DNA of 40,394 nucleotides from Leptolyngbyaceae cyanobacterium MO_188.B28. GTDB taxonomy: Bacteria > Cyanobacteriota > Cyanobacteriia > Phormidesmidales > Phormidesmidaceae. Position numbers and translations under genes: made by a program. Every line of letters begins with the position of its first letter. Within the stretch, counting starts at the first letter, position 1. The stretch lies in assembly GCA_030065175.1 (NCBI GenBank), contig JASJDH010000017.1, positions 1 to 40,394 of the forward strand, written 5' to 3'. Positions 7,542 through 14,388 of this stretch are shown one piece after another. Below the pieces are notes generated by a model. That model was not told where the DNA came from, ran no database searches, and saw only the letters and a list, made by a program, of their open reading frames with translations.

Positions 7542-8364
7542 GAACGTCTTCAGACTGTGCAAACTGGATGAATTCCTGCGTCAACCCTGACGGGGGATTA
7601 GCGGTGACTAACGTCAGCGGGCGAGCCAGTGGAAAACTGCCATCTTGAACGGTTTCTACAGTCGCCTCGACGCCGCCCACTGGCAGCAAATGAATCGGAG
7701 CGCCCTGGCCGATGTCGTACTCAGCCGCCCCGATGGAGACGTAGCCAATGGCGTTAGCATTTCCGGCAACGGTTTTGATCCCCTGTTGATTGTCGCCAAT
7801 GATCACGTCTGCCTGGATTTGAGAGTTTTGTAGCTGGAAATAACTGAGAAACAACTCCAGGGTCGACCGTCCCTCCGCTTTATTCACCACCGTAATGGGC
7901 GCGTCTTCACCGCCCACTTCTCGCCAGTTCTGGATTTGATTGGTATAGATATCCACCAGCTGGCGATCGCTAATGGCGCCGACCGAATTGGCTTTATTGA
8001 TAATGACGCCAATCCCATCCTGGGCGATCACAAAGCCTTGAAAGTCATCGGTTTCTTCCGGCTTCAAGGCTCGGGAAATCATGCCAATATCCGCTAGCCT
8101 CTGTTTAGCGTCCGCCAGTCCTCGGGAGGATCCCCCTGTTTGAACATCGATTCGAACGCTAGGATGCTCAGCCTCAAAGCGTTTGGCGATTTCGCCCACC
8201 AAGGGGGCGACGGTGCTTGACCCCGTCAAGATCAATTTACCAGTTAACCCATCTGACGATGGCGCCGTCCCCTGGGGAGATGAGGAACAAGCCTGGACTC
8301 CAAAACTAGCGGCCAGGCTGACGATAAAGGCGGCGAAATACCCTCGATTTCGCATTAACCTCAT
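7474..8364 (-). CDS. pstS: Phosphate-binding lipoprotein PstS
   Basis: Periplasmic phosphate-binding protein, 296 residues. It has a lipoprotein-type signal peptide (hydrophobic AAFIVSLAASF then GVQAC, modified Cys at residue 26; the -2 residue is Gln, slightly off consensus). The PstS signature LTGSSTVAPLVGEI, which contacts phosphate, is present, as is TGGSSRGLADAKQ. The ATG shares one base with the stop of arsM (TAATG), so the two are translationally coupled. Whether this PstS discriminates arsenate from phosphate cannot be told by eye, though the neighbour makes the question relevant. Confidence 0.95.
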   Translation of the reverse strand: MRLMRNRGYFAAFIVSLAASFGVQACSSSPQGTAPSSDGLTGKLILTGSSTVAPLVGEIAKRFEAEHPSVRIDVQTGGSSRGLADAKQRLADIGMISRALKPEETDDFQGFVIAQDGIGVIINKANSVGAISDRQLVDIYTNQIQNWREVGGEDAPITVVNKAEGRSTLELFLSYFQLQNSQIQADVIIGDNQQGIKTVAGNANAIGYVSIGAAEYDIGQGAPIHLLPVGGVEATVETVQDGSFPLARPLTLVTANPPSGLTQEFIQFAQSEDVHDIIKAQNFVPVQRKELAQTLR

Positions 8365-9326
8365 TAGCAGCAGCCTCCACCGTCATAGTGCCAGGTGGAA
8401 TCCGTCACCAGGATTTCCTCAAATTTCCCCAATTTGCCTGCGGTCTTGTCGCACACCGCCAGAGGAACACCGGGTTGCAGAATGTGGCCGACCTGGTCGT
8501 CAAAATAGTCTTCCGCGCCTGCATAGACAGCCGTTTTACCGGTGAAAACGCAGGGACCATCTTCCGGAATCACCACCTTGAAGGAGACGGAATCCAGACT
8601 CTCTAGCAGCAAATGCTCCTCTAGCTCGTAATTTTTCTGATCCAGGAGTCGATAGGGGCGGCGCGCCCGCACTTCCACTTGGCCAAACCCAGCTCTAACA
8701 ATCCGCTGAACGTATTGTTCATAGGTCAGGGCGCCAGAAAGGCACATCGCCCGCAACCGTTCATCCTGCTGTAGATGGAGCGGGATGGAACGGGTGGCGA
8801 TTGGATCGCTCATGACTAAGCGGCCGCCGGGTTTCAACACCCGATAAGCTTCCTGCAGCGCTTTAGATAAGTCTTCCGGTTCAAAGATATTGAACAGGCA
8901 GTTCTGCGCCACCACATCTACGGAATCGTCTGGAACGGGCAGGTCGAAAGCGTCGCCAGCCTTTATGATGACAAAGCTGGGATCAAACCAAGCATTCTCT
9001 TCAGCAGCGATTGACAAGTTACGGGCCGCCGCTTGCCGCATCGAGTCGACGGGATCGATGGCGACAACCGCCCCCGGTCGACGGGAGAAATAAGCAAACT
9101 GTAAGGCTTCCAGCCCTCCGCCAACCCCAACGTATAGAACGGTGGGTTCTCCAGAGAGCTCAGCTGGGTGAACAGTCGTTCCGCAGCCGTAATTCATTTC
9201 CTGCATCGATGCGGGAATTTCCAGTCCAGGCAGCTGGAGGGGCGTACTCTGGACACAGCACAATCCCACTGAGGGGGTTTCTGCAACTTCGGTGTAAAAA
9301 TCGGCAACGGTTTCTAAGTACGTCAC
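8364..9326 (-). CDS. arsM: Arsenite S-adenosylmethionine methyltransferase ArsM
   Basis: Methyltransferase of 320 residues. The SAM-binding motif I is VLYVGVGGGLEALQFA (64-79) and motif II/III follows as SVDVVAQNCLFNIFEPEDL and YRVLKPGGRLVMSDP. Conserved cysteines expected to bind As(III) are visible at C48 (NYGCG), C143 (QNCLFN) and C195 (AMCLSGAL), with an early CC pair at 23-24 and a C-terminal GGGCC. This is the type named as the arsenite methyltransferase of arsenosugar biosynthesis. It would turn arsenite into methylated species in the cytoplasm. The start is GTG with a GAGG site seven bases ahead. It leads the pst operon. No adjacent arsenosugar radical-SAM enzyme (ArsS) or ArsR is present in this window. 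Confidence 0.9.
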   Translation of the reverse strand: MTYLETVADFYTEVAETPSVGLCCVQSTPLQLPGLEIPASMQEMNYGCGTTVHPAELSGEPTVLYVGVGGGLEALQFAYFSRRPGAVVAIDPVDSMRQAAARNLSIAAEENAWFDPSFVIIKAGDAFDLPVPDDSVDVVAQNCLFNIFEPEDLSKALQEAYRVLKPGGRLVMSDPIATRSIPLHLQQDERLRAMCLSGALTYEQYVQRIVRAGFGQVEVRARRPYRLLDQKNYELEEHLLLESLDSVSFKVVIPEDGPCVFTGKTAVYAGAEDYFDDQVGHILQPGVPLAVCDKTAGKLGKFEEILVTDSTWHYDGGGCC

Positions 9327-10260: not shown

Positions 10261-13200
10261 ATGACTGGTTATCAGGATGTCTTTATTTCCTACGGCAGGG
10301 CGGATAGCAAAGTATTTGCTAAGAAGCTGCATGATCGTCTAATCCAAAAGGGGTTAGAGGTTTGGTTCGACTTTGAGGATATCCCCCTCGGCGTTGACTA
10401 TCAGACCCAAATTAATCAGGGCATTGAACAAACCCACAACTTTGTATTCATCATTTCTCCCCATGCCGTCAACTCCCCCTACTGCGCCAAGGAAATTGAA
10501 CTGGCGGTTAACCTCCACAAACGCATCATTCCCTTGATGCATGTGGAGGAAATTAGTCGAGACACCTGGCTACAGCGGTATCCCCACTGCACTGATGAAG
10601 ACTGGGCGGCCTATCGGGCTAAGGGATTACACGCAAGCTATCCCAATATGCACGCCGAAATTAGTCGGATTAACTGGGTCTATTTTAGAGAAAACATTGA
10701 TGATTTTGAACAGTCCCTGGTCAGGCTGCTTGAAATCATTGAACGACAGCAGACTTATGTTCATCAGCACACTGACCTGCTGACAAAGGCGCTGGTGTGG
10801 GAACGACATCAGAAGCAATTTCAATACTTGCTGACGGGATCCGCCAGGCAGTCGGCGGAAGGCTGGCTGAAAACCCGATGGCCAGATAAACAACCTCCCT
10901 GTCAGCCCACCGATTTGCACTGTGAGTTCATCTGCGAGAGCGCCAAAACCGCCAACAACGGTATGACTCAGGTGTTTCTCGCCTACGCTGAGGCGGATGC
11001 CGCGATCGCCCAAAGAGTCGGTAATACCCTGATGCGGGAGAGTATTACGCTCTGTGCAAACACCCCTAACATTCAGACCAACGGCGCCATTCAAGAAGAA
11101 TGCGATCAGGGGGTTGAGAAAGCTGATAATGTCGTTTATTTGGTTTCCGCCCAAGCGTTGCAATCCCGCGATTGCCAGCAAGACATTGACTACGCCCTCA
11201 GCCTCAACAAGCGGATCATACCCTTGCTGCTGGAAGCTAACGCCATAGAAACCATTCCGGCCAAATTACAGGCTTTGCAGTTTATTGATTTCAGCCGCCA
11301 GGACATTGCCAGCTATCGCCGCGCCGCCGCCAAACTGCTCTATGTCTTAAGGGAAGACGCTGCATACTACAAAGAGCACAAAAAACTGCTGGCCAAGGCG
11401 TTGAAATGGGCGCAGCAAAATCGCAATCCTAGCATTTTGCTCCGGGGCTATACGCTAAGCCATGCCGAAACCTGGCTGATGTTGGCGCAAAGGCGATCGC
11501 AGCATCCCCCCACCGCTCTGCAGGAAGACTTCATTGCCGAAAGTCTGCGCCAACCACCCGCAACCTCACTGGATGTCTTTATCTCTTACTCGCACACAGA
11601 CGCCGACTTTGCCCGCAAGCTCAACGACGCCCTACAGCTCCAAGGCAAGACAACCTGGTTTGATCAAGAAAGCATTGGGGCGGGCGCCGACTTTCAGCAA
11701 GCTATCCATCAAGGCATTGAAACCGCCGATAATTTCCTATTTGTGCTTTCCCCAGATTCAATCAACTCCCCCTCTTCCTTGGATGAAGCGGATTATGCGG
11801 CTAAGTTGAACAAACGCGTGATTGCAGTGTTGCATCACCCGGTGAATCCGGCTGATTTGCCTTCCGAGTTAACCCAGATTCAATGGATTGACTTCAGTCG
11901 ACAGGGCGGTGATTTTTATAGCAATTTCTGTGAATTAATCCGCACTCTGGATCTGGATCGAGCGCATGTGAAAAGCCATACTAAGTGGACCCAACGGGCG
12001 ATCGAATGGACCCAGCGCGATCGCAATGAAGACCTGCTTTTGCGGGGAAGCGAATTGGTCATCGCTCAAAACTGGCTGGCGAACGCCGAACAACAGGCCA
12101 AACGCCCAACTCCGACCTCATTACAGCAAACCTTTATCCAAGCCAGTATAGACCTCCAAACCCGTCTGCAGCAACAGGAAGAAGCTCAGCATCAGCGCCA
12201 GTTAGCCCAGGAGCGCCGAGCCCGTAAAATGGCTCAGCGGACCACCCGCCGCGTGATCATTGGCGGCTTGTTGATGGCGGGGCTCTCTCTCTTTGCAGGC
12301 GTACAGTTGAGAGAATCAGAAATCAACGAAGTCCGGGCCCTAGTCGCCTCCGCCAAAGTGGACTTAACCCGGAATAGAGATTTCGATGCGGTGCTCCACA
12401 GTTTGCATGCGTTCCATGAAATAGTTTGGTTGCGCTGGCTTCTGGCCCCCACCGCACACCTTCAGAATGATGTAATTGATGTTCTGCGACAAGCCGTCAA
12501 TGTGAAGGAACGCAATCGGATTGAGGTGGATTCGGTTTGGCGGGTGCGTTTTAGTCCAGATGGTCAGACACTGGCCACAGCCTCCTACGACGGGACTATG
12601 CAGTTATGGACAGTCCAGGGAAGCGAACTTCGTCTACTGACGGAAATGATCCATGAAGAAGCGCTGAGTGAGATCCAATTCAGTCCCGATGGACAGAGGA
12701 TCGCCGCCGCGTTGCAAAATGGCGACGTGCAGATCTGGACAACTGCTGGACAAGTCCTGACAACCCTCGGCGGAAATGACGGCGCTATCACCAGTCTTAG
12801 CTTTAGCCCCGATGGCCAAACCCTAGCGACCGCCGCCGTAAACAATACGGTCCGGCTATGGAATTTACAAACCAACGAACCGCTTCAGTCCAGCCCCAAT
12901 GAATATTTGGGGGGCCGGGTTAGCTTCAGTCCCAATGGTCAGCGGTTGGCCACGATTCACTATGATGGAACGCTTTATTTATGGGATTTAGACGGCGACC
13001 AACCCGCCCAACGGATTGAGCATGAGACTGATATTGGGTGGGTTAGTTTTAGTCCCCTTAACCCATCGTCGCCTGACGACGACAGCGGTCAGATTCTAGC
13101 CACCGCCTCAAATGATGGGTCAGTTTACCTGTGGGATTTGCAAGGAAACCCACTGACGAAATTCCAAGCCCATAATGCGACGATTTGGGAAATCAGCTTT

Positions 13201-14388
13201 AGTCCCAATGGCGATGTTTTGGCGACTGCTTCAGCCGATGGAACCGTCCGCTTTTGGGATTTACAGGGGCGCGAATTATCTCAACTGAGTGGATACGATT
13301 ATGAAGTCTGGAGTTTTAGTTTTAGTCCGAATGGCGAAACTCTGGCCACCGCGTCTGGAGACGGCATGGTTCGCTTATGGGATACGACCCAAACTGAAAA
13401 CCCCATTCTGAGGGGACACCGAGATGCGGTTTGGAAAGCGAGTTTCAGTCCAGATGGTCAGTTTCTGGCGACCGCTTCGGCAGACGGAACAATTCGTTTG
13501 TGGGATCTGCAGGGCTCTGAATTAGGGCAATTGAATGGTCATACCGCCGCCGTCTGGGATATCAGCTTTAGTCCCAACGGCGTTCACCTCCCCTCAGGCG
13601 AGAATACTCCATTTTTGGTCACGGCGTCAGAGGATGGCGCCGCCCGCCTATGGGATTTACAGGGCAATGAGCTGACTCAATTGAGCGGCCATACAGAGGG
13701 AGTTTGGGGGGTTCACATCAGTCCCAATGGAGAATTGATCGCCACAGCTTCAGCTGATGGAACCGCCCGCCTGTGGGATTTACAGGGACGTGAACAGGCT
13801 CACTTGATTGGCCATCAGAAGGAAATTTGGGGCGTTCGGTTTAGCCCCGACGGACAACATATCGCCACGGCTTCCTATGACGGTACGGCTCGCTTATGGG
13901 ATTTACAGGGCAATGAGCTGACTCAATTCATGGGCCATGAAGCGGAGGTTGGTATTGTCAACTTTAGCCCAGACGGTCAACATTTAGCGACGGCCTCCTA
14001 TGACAAGACGGTCCGTCTATGGGACCTGCAGGGGAATGAGCTGGCCCAATTCATCGGCCATCGGGAGAAAGTTTGGGGGGTCAGCTTTAGTCCGGATGGT
14101 CAGTTTCTGGCGACCGCTTCCGATGACAAAACAGTTCGCCTATGGGATTTGCAAGGGAAAGAACTGACCCAGTTTACCGGACATAAGCGCGGCGTTTTAA
14201 GTGTGGAATTTAGCCCGGATGGCCAATTACTAGCCACGGCTTCCGCCGATCGCACCGTTCGCCTGTGGCCGGTGGAAACCACTGATCAATTATTGGCGCG
14301 GGCTTGCAATCGGGTGCGGACGTATCTGGAAACCAGTCCTGAGGTGAGGGAACGCAACATTTGTGATGGAATTGGCGTAGAGCAGTAG
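10261..14388 (+). CDS. Triple-TIR, transmembrane, 14x WD40 protein
   Basis: 1375 residues with a striking modular layout. TIR1 spans about 5-155 (DVFISYGRADSKVF; SPYCAKEIELAV with C75 and E78). TIR2 spans about 236-360 (QVFLAYAEADAAIA; SRDCQQDID, Asp308 where a catalytic Glu is usual). TIR3 spans about 437-560 (DVFISYSHTDADFA; SPSSLDEADYAA). Each is followed by the same helical unit of about 60 residues, ending LLRG-type then AxxWL. A charged coiled segment (630-660) leads to one membrane helix (664-682) and then 14 WD40 repeats from about residue 755, enough for two seven-bladed propellers. TIR domains of this sort often cleave NAD+ or produce signalling nucleotides; TIR1 looks most intact. 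No NTPase domain is present, unlike STAND relatives. The propellers probably sense a ligand on one side of the membrane. It is monocistronic here. Function in defence or cell death is inferred. Confidence 0.9.
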   Translation: MTGYQDVFISYGRADSKVFAKKLHDRLIQKGLEVWFDFEDIPLGVDYQTQINQGIEQTHNFVFIISPHAVNSPYCAKEIELAVNLHKRIIPLMHVEEISRDTWLQRYPHCTDEDWAAYRAKGLHASYPNMHAEISRINWVYFRENIDDFEQSLVRLLEIIERQQTYVHQHTDLLTKALVWERHQKQFQYLLTGSARQSAEGWLKTRWPDKQPPCQPTDLHCEFICESAKTANNGMTQVFLAYAEADAAIAQRVGNTLMRESITLCANTPNIQTNGAIQEECDQGVEKADNVVYLVSAQALQSRDCQQDIDYALSLNKRIIPLLLEANAIETIPAKLQALQFIDFSRQDIASYRRAAAKLLYVLREDAAYYKEHKKLLAKALKWAQQNRNPSILLRGYTLSHAETWLMLAQRRSQHPPTALQEDFIAESLRQPPATSLDVFISYSHTDADFARKLNDALQLQGKTTWFDQESIGAGADFQQAIHQGIETADNFLFVLSPDSINSPSSLDEADYAAKLNKRVIAVLHHPVNPADLPSELTQIQWIDFSRQGGDFYSNFCELIRTLDLDRAHVKSHTKWTQRAIEWTQRDRNEDLLLRGSELVIAQNWLANAEQQAKRPTPTSLQQTFIQASIDLQTRLQQQEEAQHQRQLAQERRARKMAQRTTRRVIIGGLLMAGLSLFAGVQLRESEINEVRALVASAKVDLTRNRDFDAVLHSLHAFHEIVWLRWLLAPTAHLQNDVIDVLRQAVNVKERNRIEVDSVWRVRFSPDGQTLATASYDGTMQLWTVQGSELRLLTEMIHEEALSEIQFSPDGQRIAAALQNGDVQIWTTAGQVLTTLGGNDGAITSLSFSPDGQTLATAAVNNTVRLWNLQTNEPLQSSPNEYLGGRVSFSPNGQRLATIHYDGTLYLWDLDGDQPAQRIEHETDIGWVSFSPLNPSSPDDDSGQILATASNDGSVYLWDLQGNPLTKFQAHNATIWEISFSPNGDVLATASADGTVRFWDLQGRELSQLSGYDYEVWSFSFSPNGETLATASGDGMVRLWDTTQTENPILRGHRDAVWKASFSPDGQFLATASADGTIRLWDLQGSELGQLNGHTAAVWDISFSPNGVHLPSGENTPFLVTASEDGAARLWDLQGNELTQLSGHTEGVWGVHISPNGELIATASADGTARLWDLQGREQAHLIGHQKEIWGVRFSPDGQHIATASYDGTARLWDLQGNELTQFMGHEAEVGIVNFSPDGQHLATASYDKTVRLWDLQGNELAQFIGHREKVWGVSFSPDGQFLATASDDKTVRLWDLQGKELTQFTGHKRGVLSVEFSPDGQLLATASADRTVRLWPVETTDQLLARACNRVRTYLETSPEVRERNICDGIGVEQ
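12525..14280 (+). repeat. Tandem WD40-coding repeats
   Basis: Fourteen coding repeats of about 120-126 bases, each carrying FSPDGQ/FSPNG near the start and RLWDLQG near the end. The repeats from 13.1 kb onward are nearly uniform at DNA level, which points to recent duplication or gene conversion. Repeats 5 and 9 carry short insertions of about 9-11 residues before the ATAS motif. Confidence 0.85.

What the first reader, a model, noticed from the sequence alone, without database searches (positions are those of the whole stretch)
10261..14388. Three TIR-helical units on one membrane-anchored, 14-blade WD40 protein
Three TIR domains, each followed by the same helical unit, precede a single membrane helix and two propellers' worth of WD40. 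There is no STAND NTPase. TIR1 keeps the Cys/Glu motif, TIR2 has Asp in place of Glu, TIR3 has lost the Cys. This looks like one active TIR with two scaffold copies, pre-assembled in one chain rather than by oligomerisation.
Basis: partly seen in the sequence, partly recalled or inferred. Interest (0 to 1): 0.72.

Follow-up and report, generated by a model that had tools for sequence, protein, structure and literature searches.

The report
Three-TIR membrane receptor of cyanobacteria
This cyanobacterial gene encodes a membrane receptor with three Toll-type (TIR) signalling domains, probably inside the cell, and a double propeller sensor, probably outside it; its family is strongly tied, by co-occurrence and gene neighbourhood, to relatives of the ADP-ribose sensor of animal TRPM2 channels and to predicted pore-forming proteins, which suggests a bacterial receptor-messenger-pore relay.

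Summary
In detail: one 1375-aa ORF with three TIRs, each followed by a three-helix unit, one TM helix (aa 665-683) and 14 WD40 blades; no STAND NTPase.

The reading needs changing. In 98 relatives all three TIRs usually keep an aromatic-Cys-x-x-Glu pocket (aromatic + Glu in all three in 70/98; TIR1 Glu 97/97). This copy is a degraded exception: TIR2 has D308 and lost its aromatic, and TIR3 lost aromatic and Cys but keeps Glu509. So 'one active plus two scaffolds' may fit this copy, not the family. No relative has a decayed NTPase.

Positive-inside bias, near-absence of Cys in the propellers, a conserved C-terminal Cys pair, and exchange of WD40 for CHASE2 put the sensor outside the membrane.

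New: the TIR-helical family co-occurs with LSDAT (TRPM2-type SLOG) genes (23 of 24 vs 29 of 386 genomes; again 34/2/4/25 within one family) and lies by LSDAT and SLATT genes, sometimes as LSDAT-SLATT-TIR runs. Best model: outside signal, TIR NADase, ADPR-type messenger, LSDAT, SLATT pore. The messenger and enzymology are inferred. In this genome LSDAT is on another contig.

The parts
10261..14388 (+). Whole gene: three TIR-helical units, TM helix, two 7-bladed WD40 propellers (1375 aa)
10261..10749 (+). TIR1 (aa 1-163), pocket Y74-C75-x-x-E78 intact (E78 = 10492-10494); Glu and Cys kept in 97/97 relatives that cover it
10750..10953 (+). Helical unit 1 (aa 164-231, three helices)
10957..11358 (+). 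TIR2 (aa 233-366), degenerate in this copy: W265C, D270N, I285V, Y304D, E308D (D308 = 11182-11184)
11359..11553 (+). Helical unit 2 (aa 367-431)
   Evidence: no Pfam match
11560..11958 (+). TIR3 (aa 434-566); catalytic Glu509 kept (11785-11787), pocket Tyr and Cys replaced by S505-S506
11959..12252 (+). Helical unit 3 and Arg/Lys-rich juxtamembrane helix (aa 567-664)
12253..12309 (+). Single transmembrane helix (aa 665-683, mean hydropathy 2.04), 9 K+R in the 30 residues before and 5 after
12310..12498 (+). Post-membrane helical hairpin (aa 684-746)
12508..14271 (+). WD40 repeats, 14 blades (aa 750-1337), no Cys; probably extracytoplasmic
14272..14385 (+). C-terminal tail with the family's conserved Cys pair (C1349, C1368), candidate disulfide

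Best explanation
The protein is a single-pass membrane receptor of a cyanobacterial TIR signalling network. The three TIR-helical units face the cytoplasm; the two WD40 propellers, closed by a C-terminal disulfide, face the periplasm or thylakoid lumen and sense an unknown ligand or envelope event. Binding or clustering brings TIRs together so that a composite NAD+-cleaving site forms. In most relatives all three TIRs could be catalytic; in this copy TIR1 is the main candidate, TIR3 a possible second, TIR2 a structural partner. The ADP-ribose-type product is sensed by a cytoplasmic LSDAT protein (the SLOG domain family that binds ADP-ribose in TRPM2), which acts on or with a SLATT/DUF4231 two-helix membrane protein, in some genomes fused to a lysozyme, chitinase or peptidase domain, giving membrane permeabilisation or lysis. 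Shown: architecture, family-wide pocket conservation, exchangeable sensors, co-occurrence and physical linkage with LSDAT and SLATT. Inferred: topology (strong), NADase activity, messenger identity, order of the relay, its purpose (defence or programmed death), and that this copy signals in trans to the genome's one detected LSDAT.
For: (1) TIR1 and TIR3 align to NAD+ hydrolases of known structure (AbTIR, SARM1), with TIR1 E78 at the catalytic Glu and Y74 at the aromatic four residues before it; the predicted structure matches SARM1, SPARTA and AbTir TIRs. (2) Pocket kept in all three TIRs in 70/98, Glu 97/97 in TIR1. (3) Topology: K+R 6.4 before against 3.8 after the TM (49 proteins for, 4 against, p = 1e-9); Cys 1.17% in the TIR half, 0.11% in the propeller half; two Cys in the last 45 residues in 56 of 61; clear no-TM WD40 proteins of the same genome carry 10-13 Cys per 390-570 aa; paralogues replace WD40 by CHASE2, a domain of outside receptors. 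(4) TIR-helical receptors in 24 of 386 cyanobacterial genomes, LSDAT in 29, both in 23 (p = 2e-30; 4e-16 even if only 100 genomes were eligible); triple-TIR alone 11 of 12. (5) Repeat inside one taxonomic family: 34 both, 2 LSDAT only, 4 TIR only, 25 neither (p = 1e-11); 25 of 42 LSDAT genes lie within 10 kb of a TIR-helical gene. (6) LSDAT and/or SLATT genes in 15 of 79 triple-TIR loci (LSDAT 12, expected about 0.2); same-strand runs LSDAT-SLATT-SLATT-tripleTIR in L081 and L246, LSDAT-2TM-TIR-TIR in L238, LSDAT 18 bp after a triple-TIR in L087/L244. (7) LSDAT's best structural relatives are TRPM2 channels.
Against: No enzyme or binding assay. The window gene itself has no LSDAT or SLATT beside it; the genome's one detected LSDAT is on another contig with no TIR gene next to it. 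Six LSDAT-bearing genomes of the 386 have no TIR-helical gene and one TIR genome (G237) has no LSDAT. Cys depletion could partly reflect a WD40 subtype. The window copy's pockets 2 and 3 are eroded, so this copy may be weakened. The AlphaFold model does not show a catalytic assembly. No phage or stress phenotype is known.
Confidence: 0.62

Rival explanations
1. The three TIRs act mainly as a scaffold (adaptor-like, as MyD88 or TLR TIRs), recruiting a separate TIR enzyme or kinase; NAD+ cleavage is not the output.
For: TIR2 and/or TIR3 pockets are eroded in this copy and in all six full-length members of this genome; MyD88 TIR assemblies are among the structural matches.
Against: Glu and Cys of TIR1 kept in 97/97, all three pockets kept in 70/98: a scaffold would not need this. 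Coupling to LSDAT, an ADPR-binding type of domain, points to an NAD+-derived product.
Confidence: 0.15
2. Autonomous NADase: signal-driven NAD+ depletion kills the cell, with no messenger or partner; LSDAT and SLATT are linked only as co-travelling defence genes.
For: SARM1 and AbTIR, the closest solved TIRs by sequence, are NAD+ hydrolases; LSDAT and the window gene are unlinked in this genome.
Against: Near-perfect presence/absence match in two samples, repeated operon-like runs, and usually one or two LSDAT genes per genome beside many receptors are more than co-location. The abundant conflict NTPase nSTAND1, in 61 of 65 of the same genomes, does not track LSDAT.
Confidence: 0.15
3. A decayed or NTPase-less STAND receptor with a cytoplasmic WD40 sensor, simply anchored to the membrane.
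For: The helical unit and TM linker also follow STAND-type NTPases in WD40 proteins of this genome (C254, E about 1e-8), and one paralogue has nSTAND1 before TIR and CHASE2 (L021).
Against: None of 98 triple-TIR relatives has an NTPase or a remnant between the near-constantly spaced TIRs; charge and Cys patterns put the sensor outside.
Confidence: 0.05

Closest known systems
Thoeris (ThsB TIR + ThsA SIR2-SLOG or TM-macro)
   Same: TIR enzyme makes a (c)ADPR-type messenger; a SLOG or macro domain senses it; one ThsA type acts at the membrane (PMC11204291, PMC10022894).
   Different: Here the TIR sits on a membrane receptor with a probably outside sensor, the receiver is an LSDAT (TRPM-type) SLOG protein without SIR2, and the predicted effector is a separate SLATT protein. 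Messenger untested.
TIR/SLOG/SLATT nucleotide-signalling networks predicted by Burroughs, Aravind and colleagues (cited in PMC7159879, PMC9503650)
   Same: SLATT predicted as a nucleotide- or ADPr-responsive pore effector; TIR-SLATT gene neighbourhoods reported in phages and in GTPase-centred systems.
   Different: A transmembrane triple-TIR receptor with exchangeable outside sensors and its coupling to LSDAT in cyanobacteria were not found in the papers held; the 2015 source paper itself was not available.
Toll-like receptors
   Same: Membrane receptor with cytoplasmic TIR and outside repeat sensor.
   Different: Reverse order (TIR N-terminal), WD40 or CHASE2 instead of leucine-rich repeats, three TIRs with NADase-type pockets, no adaptor known. 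Analogy, not membership.
Plant TNLs and bacterial TIR-NBD-WD40 receptors
   Same: N-terminal TIR and C-terminal repeats (PMC9153377).
   Different: No nucleotide-binding switch; transmembrane; three TIRs.
SARM1 / AbTIR
   Same: Closest solved TIRs by sequence; catalytic Glu and the aromatic position align.
   Different: Single TIR per chain; SARM1 is regulated by ARM and SAM domains.

Membership tests
TIR domain superfamily (TIR_2) | TIR fold and profile match | tested here: met
   Pfam PF13676, three stretches, E 1.6e-75; fold match
Enzymatic (NADase) TIRs | Catalytic Glu with aromatic four residues before it | tested here: met
   TIR1 Y74/E78, aligned to AbTIR and SARM1. TIR2 not met (D304/D308); TIR3 Glu only (E509)
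Enzymatic (NADase) TIRs | NAD+ cleavage | not testable with these tools
   Needs an assay
STAND / TIR-NBD-WD40 receptors | STAND or NB-ARC NTPase between TIR and repeats | tested here: not met
   No NTPase family among the best 25 Pfam matches; near-constant TIR spacing without insertion in relatives
Thoeris | Adjacent thsA effector (SIR2-SLOG or TM-macro) | tested here: not met
   LSDAT and SLATT neighbours in relatives, none beside the window gene; NCBIfam ThcB4 match far below cut-off, PADLOC ThsB matches only partial
Thoeris | TIR product sensed by a SLOG domain | tested here: inconclusive
   LSDAT (SLOG family) strongly co-occurs and is linked; binding not tested
Toll-like receptor | Outside LRR, TM, C-terminal cytoplasmic TIR | tested here: not met
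   Reverse order, WD40
Single-pass receptor with outside sensor | Cytoplasmic TIR, extracytoplasmic WD40 | tested here: inconclusive
   Positive-inside bias, Cys depletion and pair, CHASE2 exchange; no experiment

The most novel reading that the evidence does not exclude
A bacterial receptor-to-channel relay in which many transmembrane TIR receptors with interchangeable outside sensors (WD40, CHASE2) make an ADP-ribose-type messenger that converges on one or two TRPM2-like LSDAT receivers and a SLATT pore with built-in lysozyme or chitinase: a prokaryotic counterpart of the ADP-ribose gating of TRPM2, with TIRs pre-assembled three to a chain.
Probability: 0.45. Interest if true: 0.88.

Novelty: new variant of a known kind. 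Interest (0 to 1): 0.72.

Why it matters
To my knowledge the best-studied prokaryotic TIR systems are soluble and triggered inside the cell. A conserved family of TIR receptors that probably senses outside the membrane, without an NTPase switch, and tracks a TRPM2-type ADP-ribose sensor and a predicted pore would give a concrete, testable bacterial parallel of both Toll-like receptors and ADPR-gated channels, and a candidate ligand source for the prokaryotic LSDAT family. It also asks why three TIRs are fixed in one chain.

Tried and rejected
Decayed STAND: rejected, no NTPase in 98 relatives. Operon partner in the window: none found; the neighbours are an arsenosugar ArsM and a MASE1/PAS histidine kinase on the other strand. 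Helical unit as a known domain: no Pfam match for units 2 and 3 plus linker. Known defence system: PADLOC and NCBIfam matches only to TIR (or WD40) parts, NCBIfam ones far below cut-off. Viral structure library: best match a TIR/WD40 protein of Tetraselmis virus 1, of little further help. nSTAND1 as a negative control for co-occurrence: present in 61 of 65 genomes, so it says only that the LSDAT link is not a general conflict-gene effect. SLATT (PF14015) alone is less tightly linked than LSDAT; 16 of 25 tabulated SLATT genes lie within 10 kb of LSDAT or TIR. Burroughs et al. 2015 is not held.
Full report
WHAT IS THERE. The ORF at 10261-14388 (+) starts with ATG and encodes 1375 aa. Pfam finds three TIR_2 stretches and WD40 repeats. 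AlphaFold2 on aa 1-700 with 80 sequences gives pLDDT 89.7 and pTM 0.81, with three TIR folds, each followed by the same three helices. A model of aa 640-1375 gives 56 strands, i.e. 14 blades. A single hydrophobic helix lies at aa 665-683.

ACTIVE SITES. TIR1 aligns to AbTIR and SARM1 with E78 at the catalytic Glu and Y74 at the aromatic four residues before it. All examined enzymatic TIRs need this Glu (PMC10022894). In an alignment of 98 triple-TIR proteins the Glu is kept in TIR1 97/97, TIR2 92/98, TIR3 88/98, and aromatic plus Glu in all three TIRs in 70/98. The window copy departs: TIR2 D304/D308 with W265C, D270N and I285V also changed, TIR3 S505/S506 with Glu509 kept. The six full-length members of this genome all have at least one incomplete pocket, against 22 of 92 others. 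So 'one active, two scaffolds' may describe this copy but not the family.

FAMILY. The search for related loci returned 79 loci from many cyanobacteria (Symploca, Calothrix, Anabaena, Nostoc, Leptolyngbya, Okeania, Moorena and others), nearly all with full-length triple-TIR proteins, with TIRs at near-constant spacing and no NTPase. In 386 phylum-wide genomes 12 carry it. In the window's own genome (G000, 8.48 Mb) paralogues carry WD40, CHASE2 or only a Pro-rich tail. Single-TIR versions of the same unit also occur and align best with TIR3. The triple-TIR protein is therefore a modular receptor family, not a one-off.

TOPOLOGY. In 61 WD40 members K+R averages 6.4 before and 3.8 after the TM (49 vs 4). 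Cys is 1.17% in the TIR half and 0.11% in the propeller half, and 56 of 61 have exactly two Cys in the last 45 residues. WD40 proteins of this genome that lack a TM have 10-13 Cys in 390-570 residues (the automatic no-TM group also contains truncated members of the TM type, so the contrast rests on four clear cases, L157, L165, L170 and L178). CHASE2, an outside receptor domain (PMC8195603), replaces WD40 in sister proteins. I infer TIR inside, sensor outside; this is not shown.

PARTNERS. Clustering of flanking ORFs showed two unexpected recurrent neighbours: LSDAT_prok ('SLOG in TRPM') and DUF4231/SLATT two-TM proteins, the latter in some loci fused to phage lysozyme, GH19 or C39 peptidase domains. 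LSDAT's best PDB relatives are TRPM2 channels; the MHR1/2 region of TRPM2, to which LSDAT corresponds, is reported to bind ADP-ribose (PMC13143021). LSDAT is found in 29 of 386 genomes; TIR-helical receptors (single or triple) in 24, of which 23 have LSDAT. Repeated in 65 genomes of the window's own family the table is 34/2/4/25, so genome size and deep phylogeny do not explain it; within one genus it is 10/2/2/14 (p = 0.0003). These p-values treat genomes as independent, which they are not; the two-level repetition and the physical linkage are the safer evidence. 25 of 42 LSDAT genes have a TIR-helical gene within 10 kb. Same-strand runs LSDAT-SLATT-SLATT-tripleTIR occur in L081 and L246, LSDAT-2TM-TIR-TIR in L238, and LSDAT follows triple-TIR by 18 bp in L087 and L244. 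nSTAND1, present in 61 of 65 genomes, does not track LSDAT. CHASE2 versions tend instead to neighbour DUF928 and TPS/CHAT genes.

MECHANISM. Most likely: outside signal, TIR assembly, NAD+-derived messenger, LSDAT receiver, SLATT pore or lysis. Literature already predicts SLATT as an ADPr-responsive pore and reports TIR-SLATT neighbourhoods (PMC9503650, PMC7159879); Thoeris provides the proven TIR-to-SLOG precedent. What appears new is the transmembrane, three-TIR, exchangeable-sensor receptor and its coupling to the TRPM2-type receiver; I could not read the 2015 source paper, so priority is uncertain. In this genome one LSDAT gene and four DUF4231 genes were detected, none beside the window gene, so any relay would act in trans.

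LIMITS. No assay; topology and chemistry are inferred; this copy's TIR2 and TIR3 are eroded; the assembly is incomplete (83% complete). Co-occurrence was found after looking at neighbours, then tested on whole genomes and repeated on a second, mostly new set; it was not corrected with a tree.

Noticed in passing
L036:169-4698 (G215): A relative with five TIR matches in one chain (order T1-T2-T1-T2-T3, 1509 aa), followed by several TM helices.
   Followed up: no
L081:3581-5896, L083:10288-11694, L111:4181-5785: SLATT/DUF4231 two-TM proteins fused to C39 peptidase plus GH19, to phage lysozyme, or to GH19: would resemble a holin and endolysin in one protein.
   Followed up: partly
L012:2066-5188, L013:2026-5193, L094, L107: CHASE2 versions of the triple-TIR protein, and some WD40 ones, sit beside DUF928 genes and secreted TPS-CHAT proteins, a second recurrent neighbourhood.
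   Followed up: partly
L015:239-5866: 1875-aa ORF that reads as leucine-rich repeats, an extra TIR, TIRs of the T1/T2 type and TPRs.
   Followed up: no
BFVD A0A2P0VP16: Best viral structural match is a TIR/WD40 protein of Tetraselmis virus 1.
   Followed up: no
window 8364-9326 (-): Arsenosugar-biosynthesis arsenite methyltransferase ArsM (NF038099, 573 bits, cut-off 400).
   Followed up: no
G000 genome: Very large repertoire of conflict-type proteins: at least 20 nSTAND1 matches and dozens of WD40 proteins of both TM-linked Cys-poor and soluble Cys-rich kinds.
   Followed up: partly
G428:C10:844114-846183: A TIR-helical gene without LSDAT in its genome seems to share its 750-aa frame with nSTAND1, suggesting a different, NTPase-fused class.
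   Followed up: no
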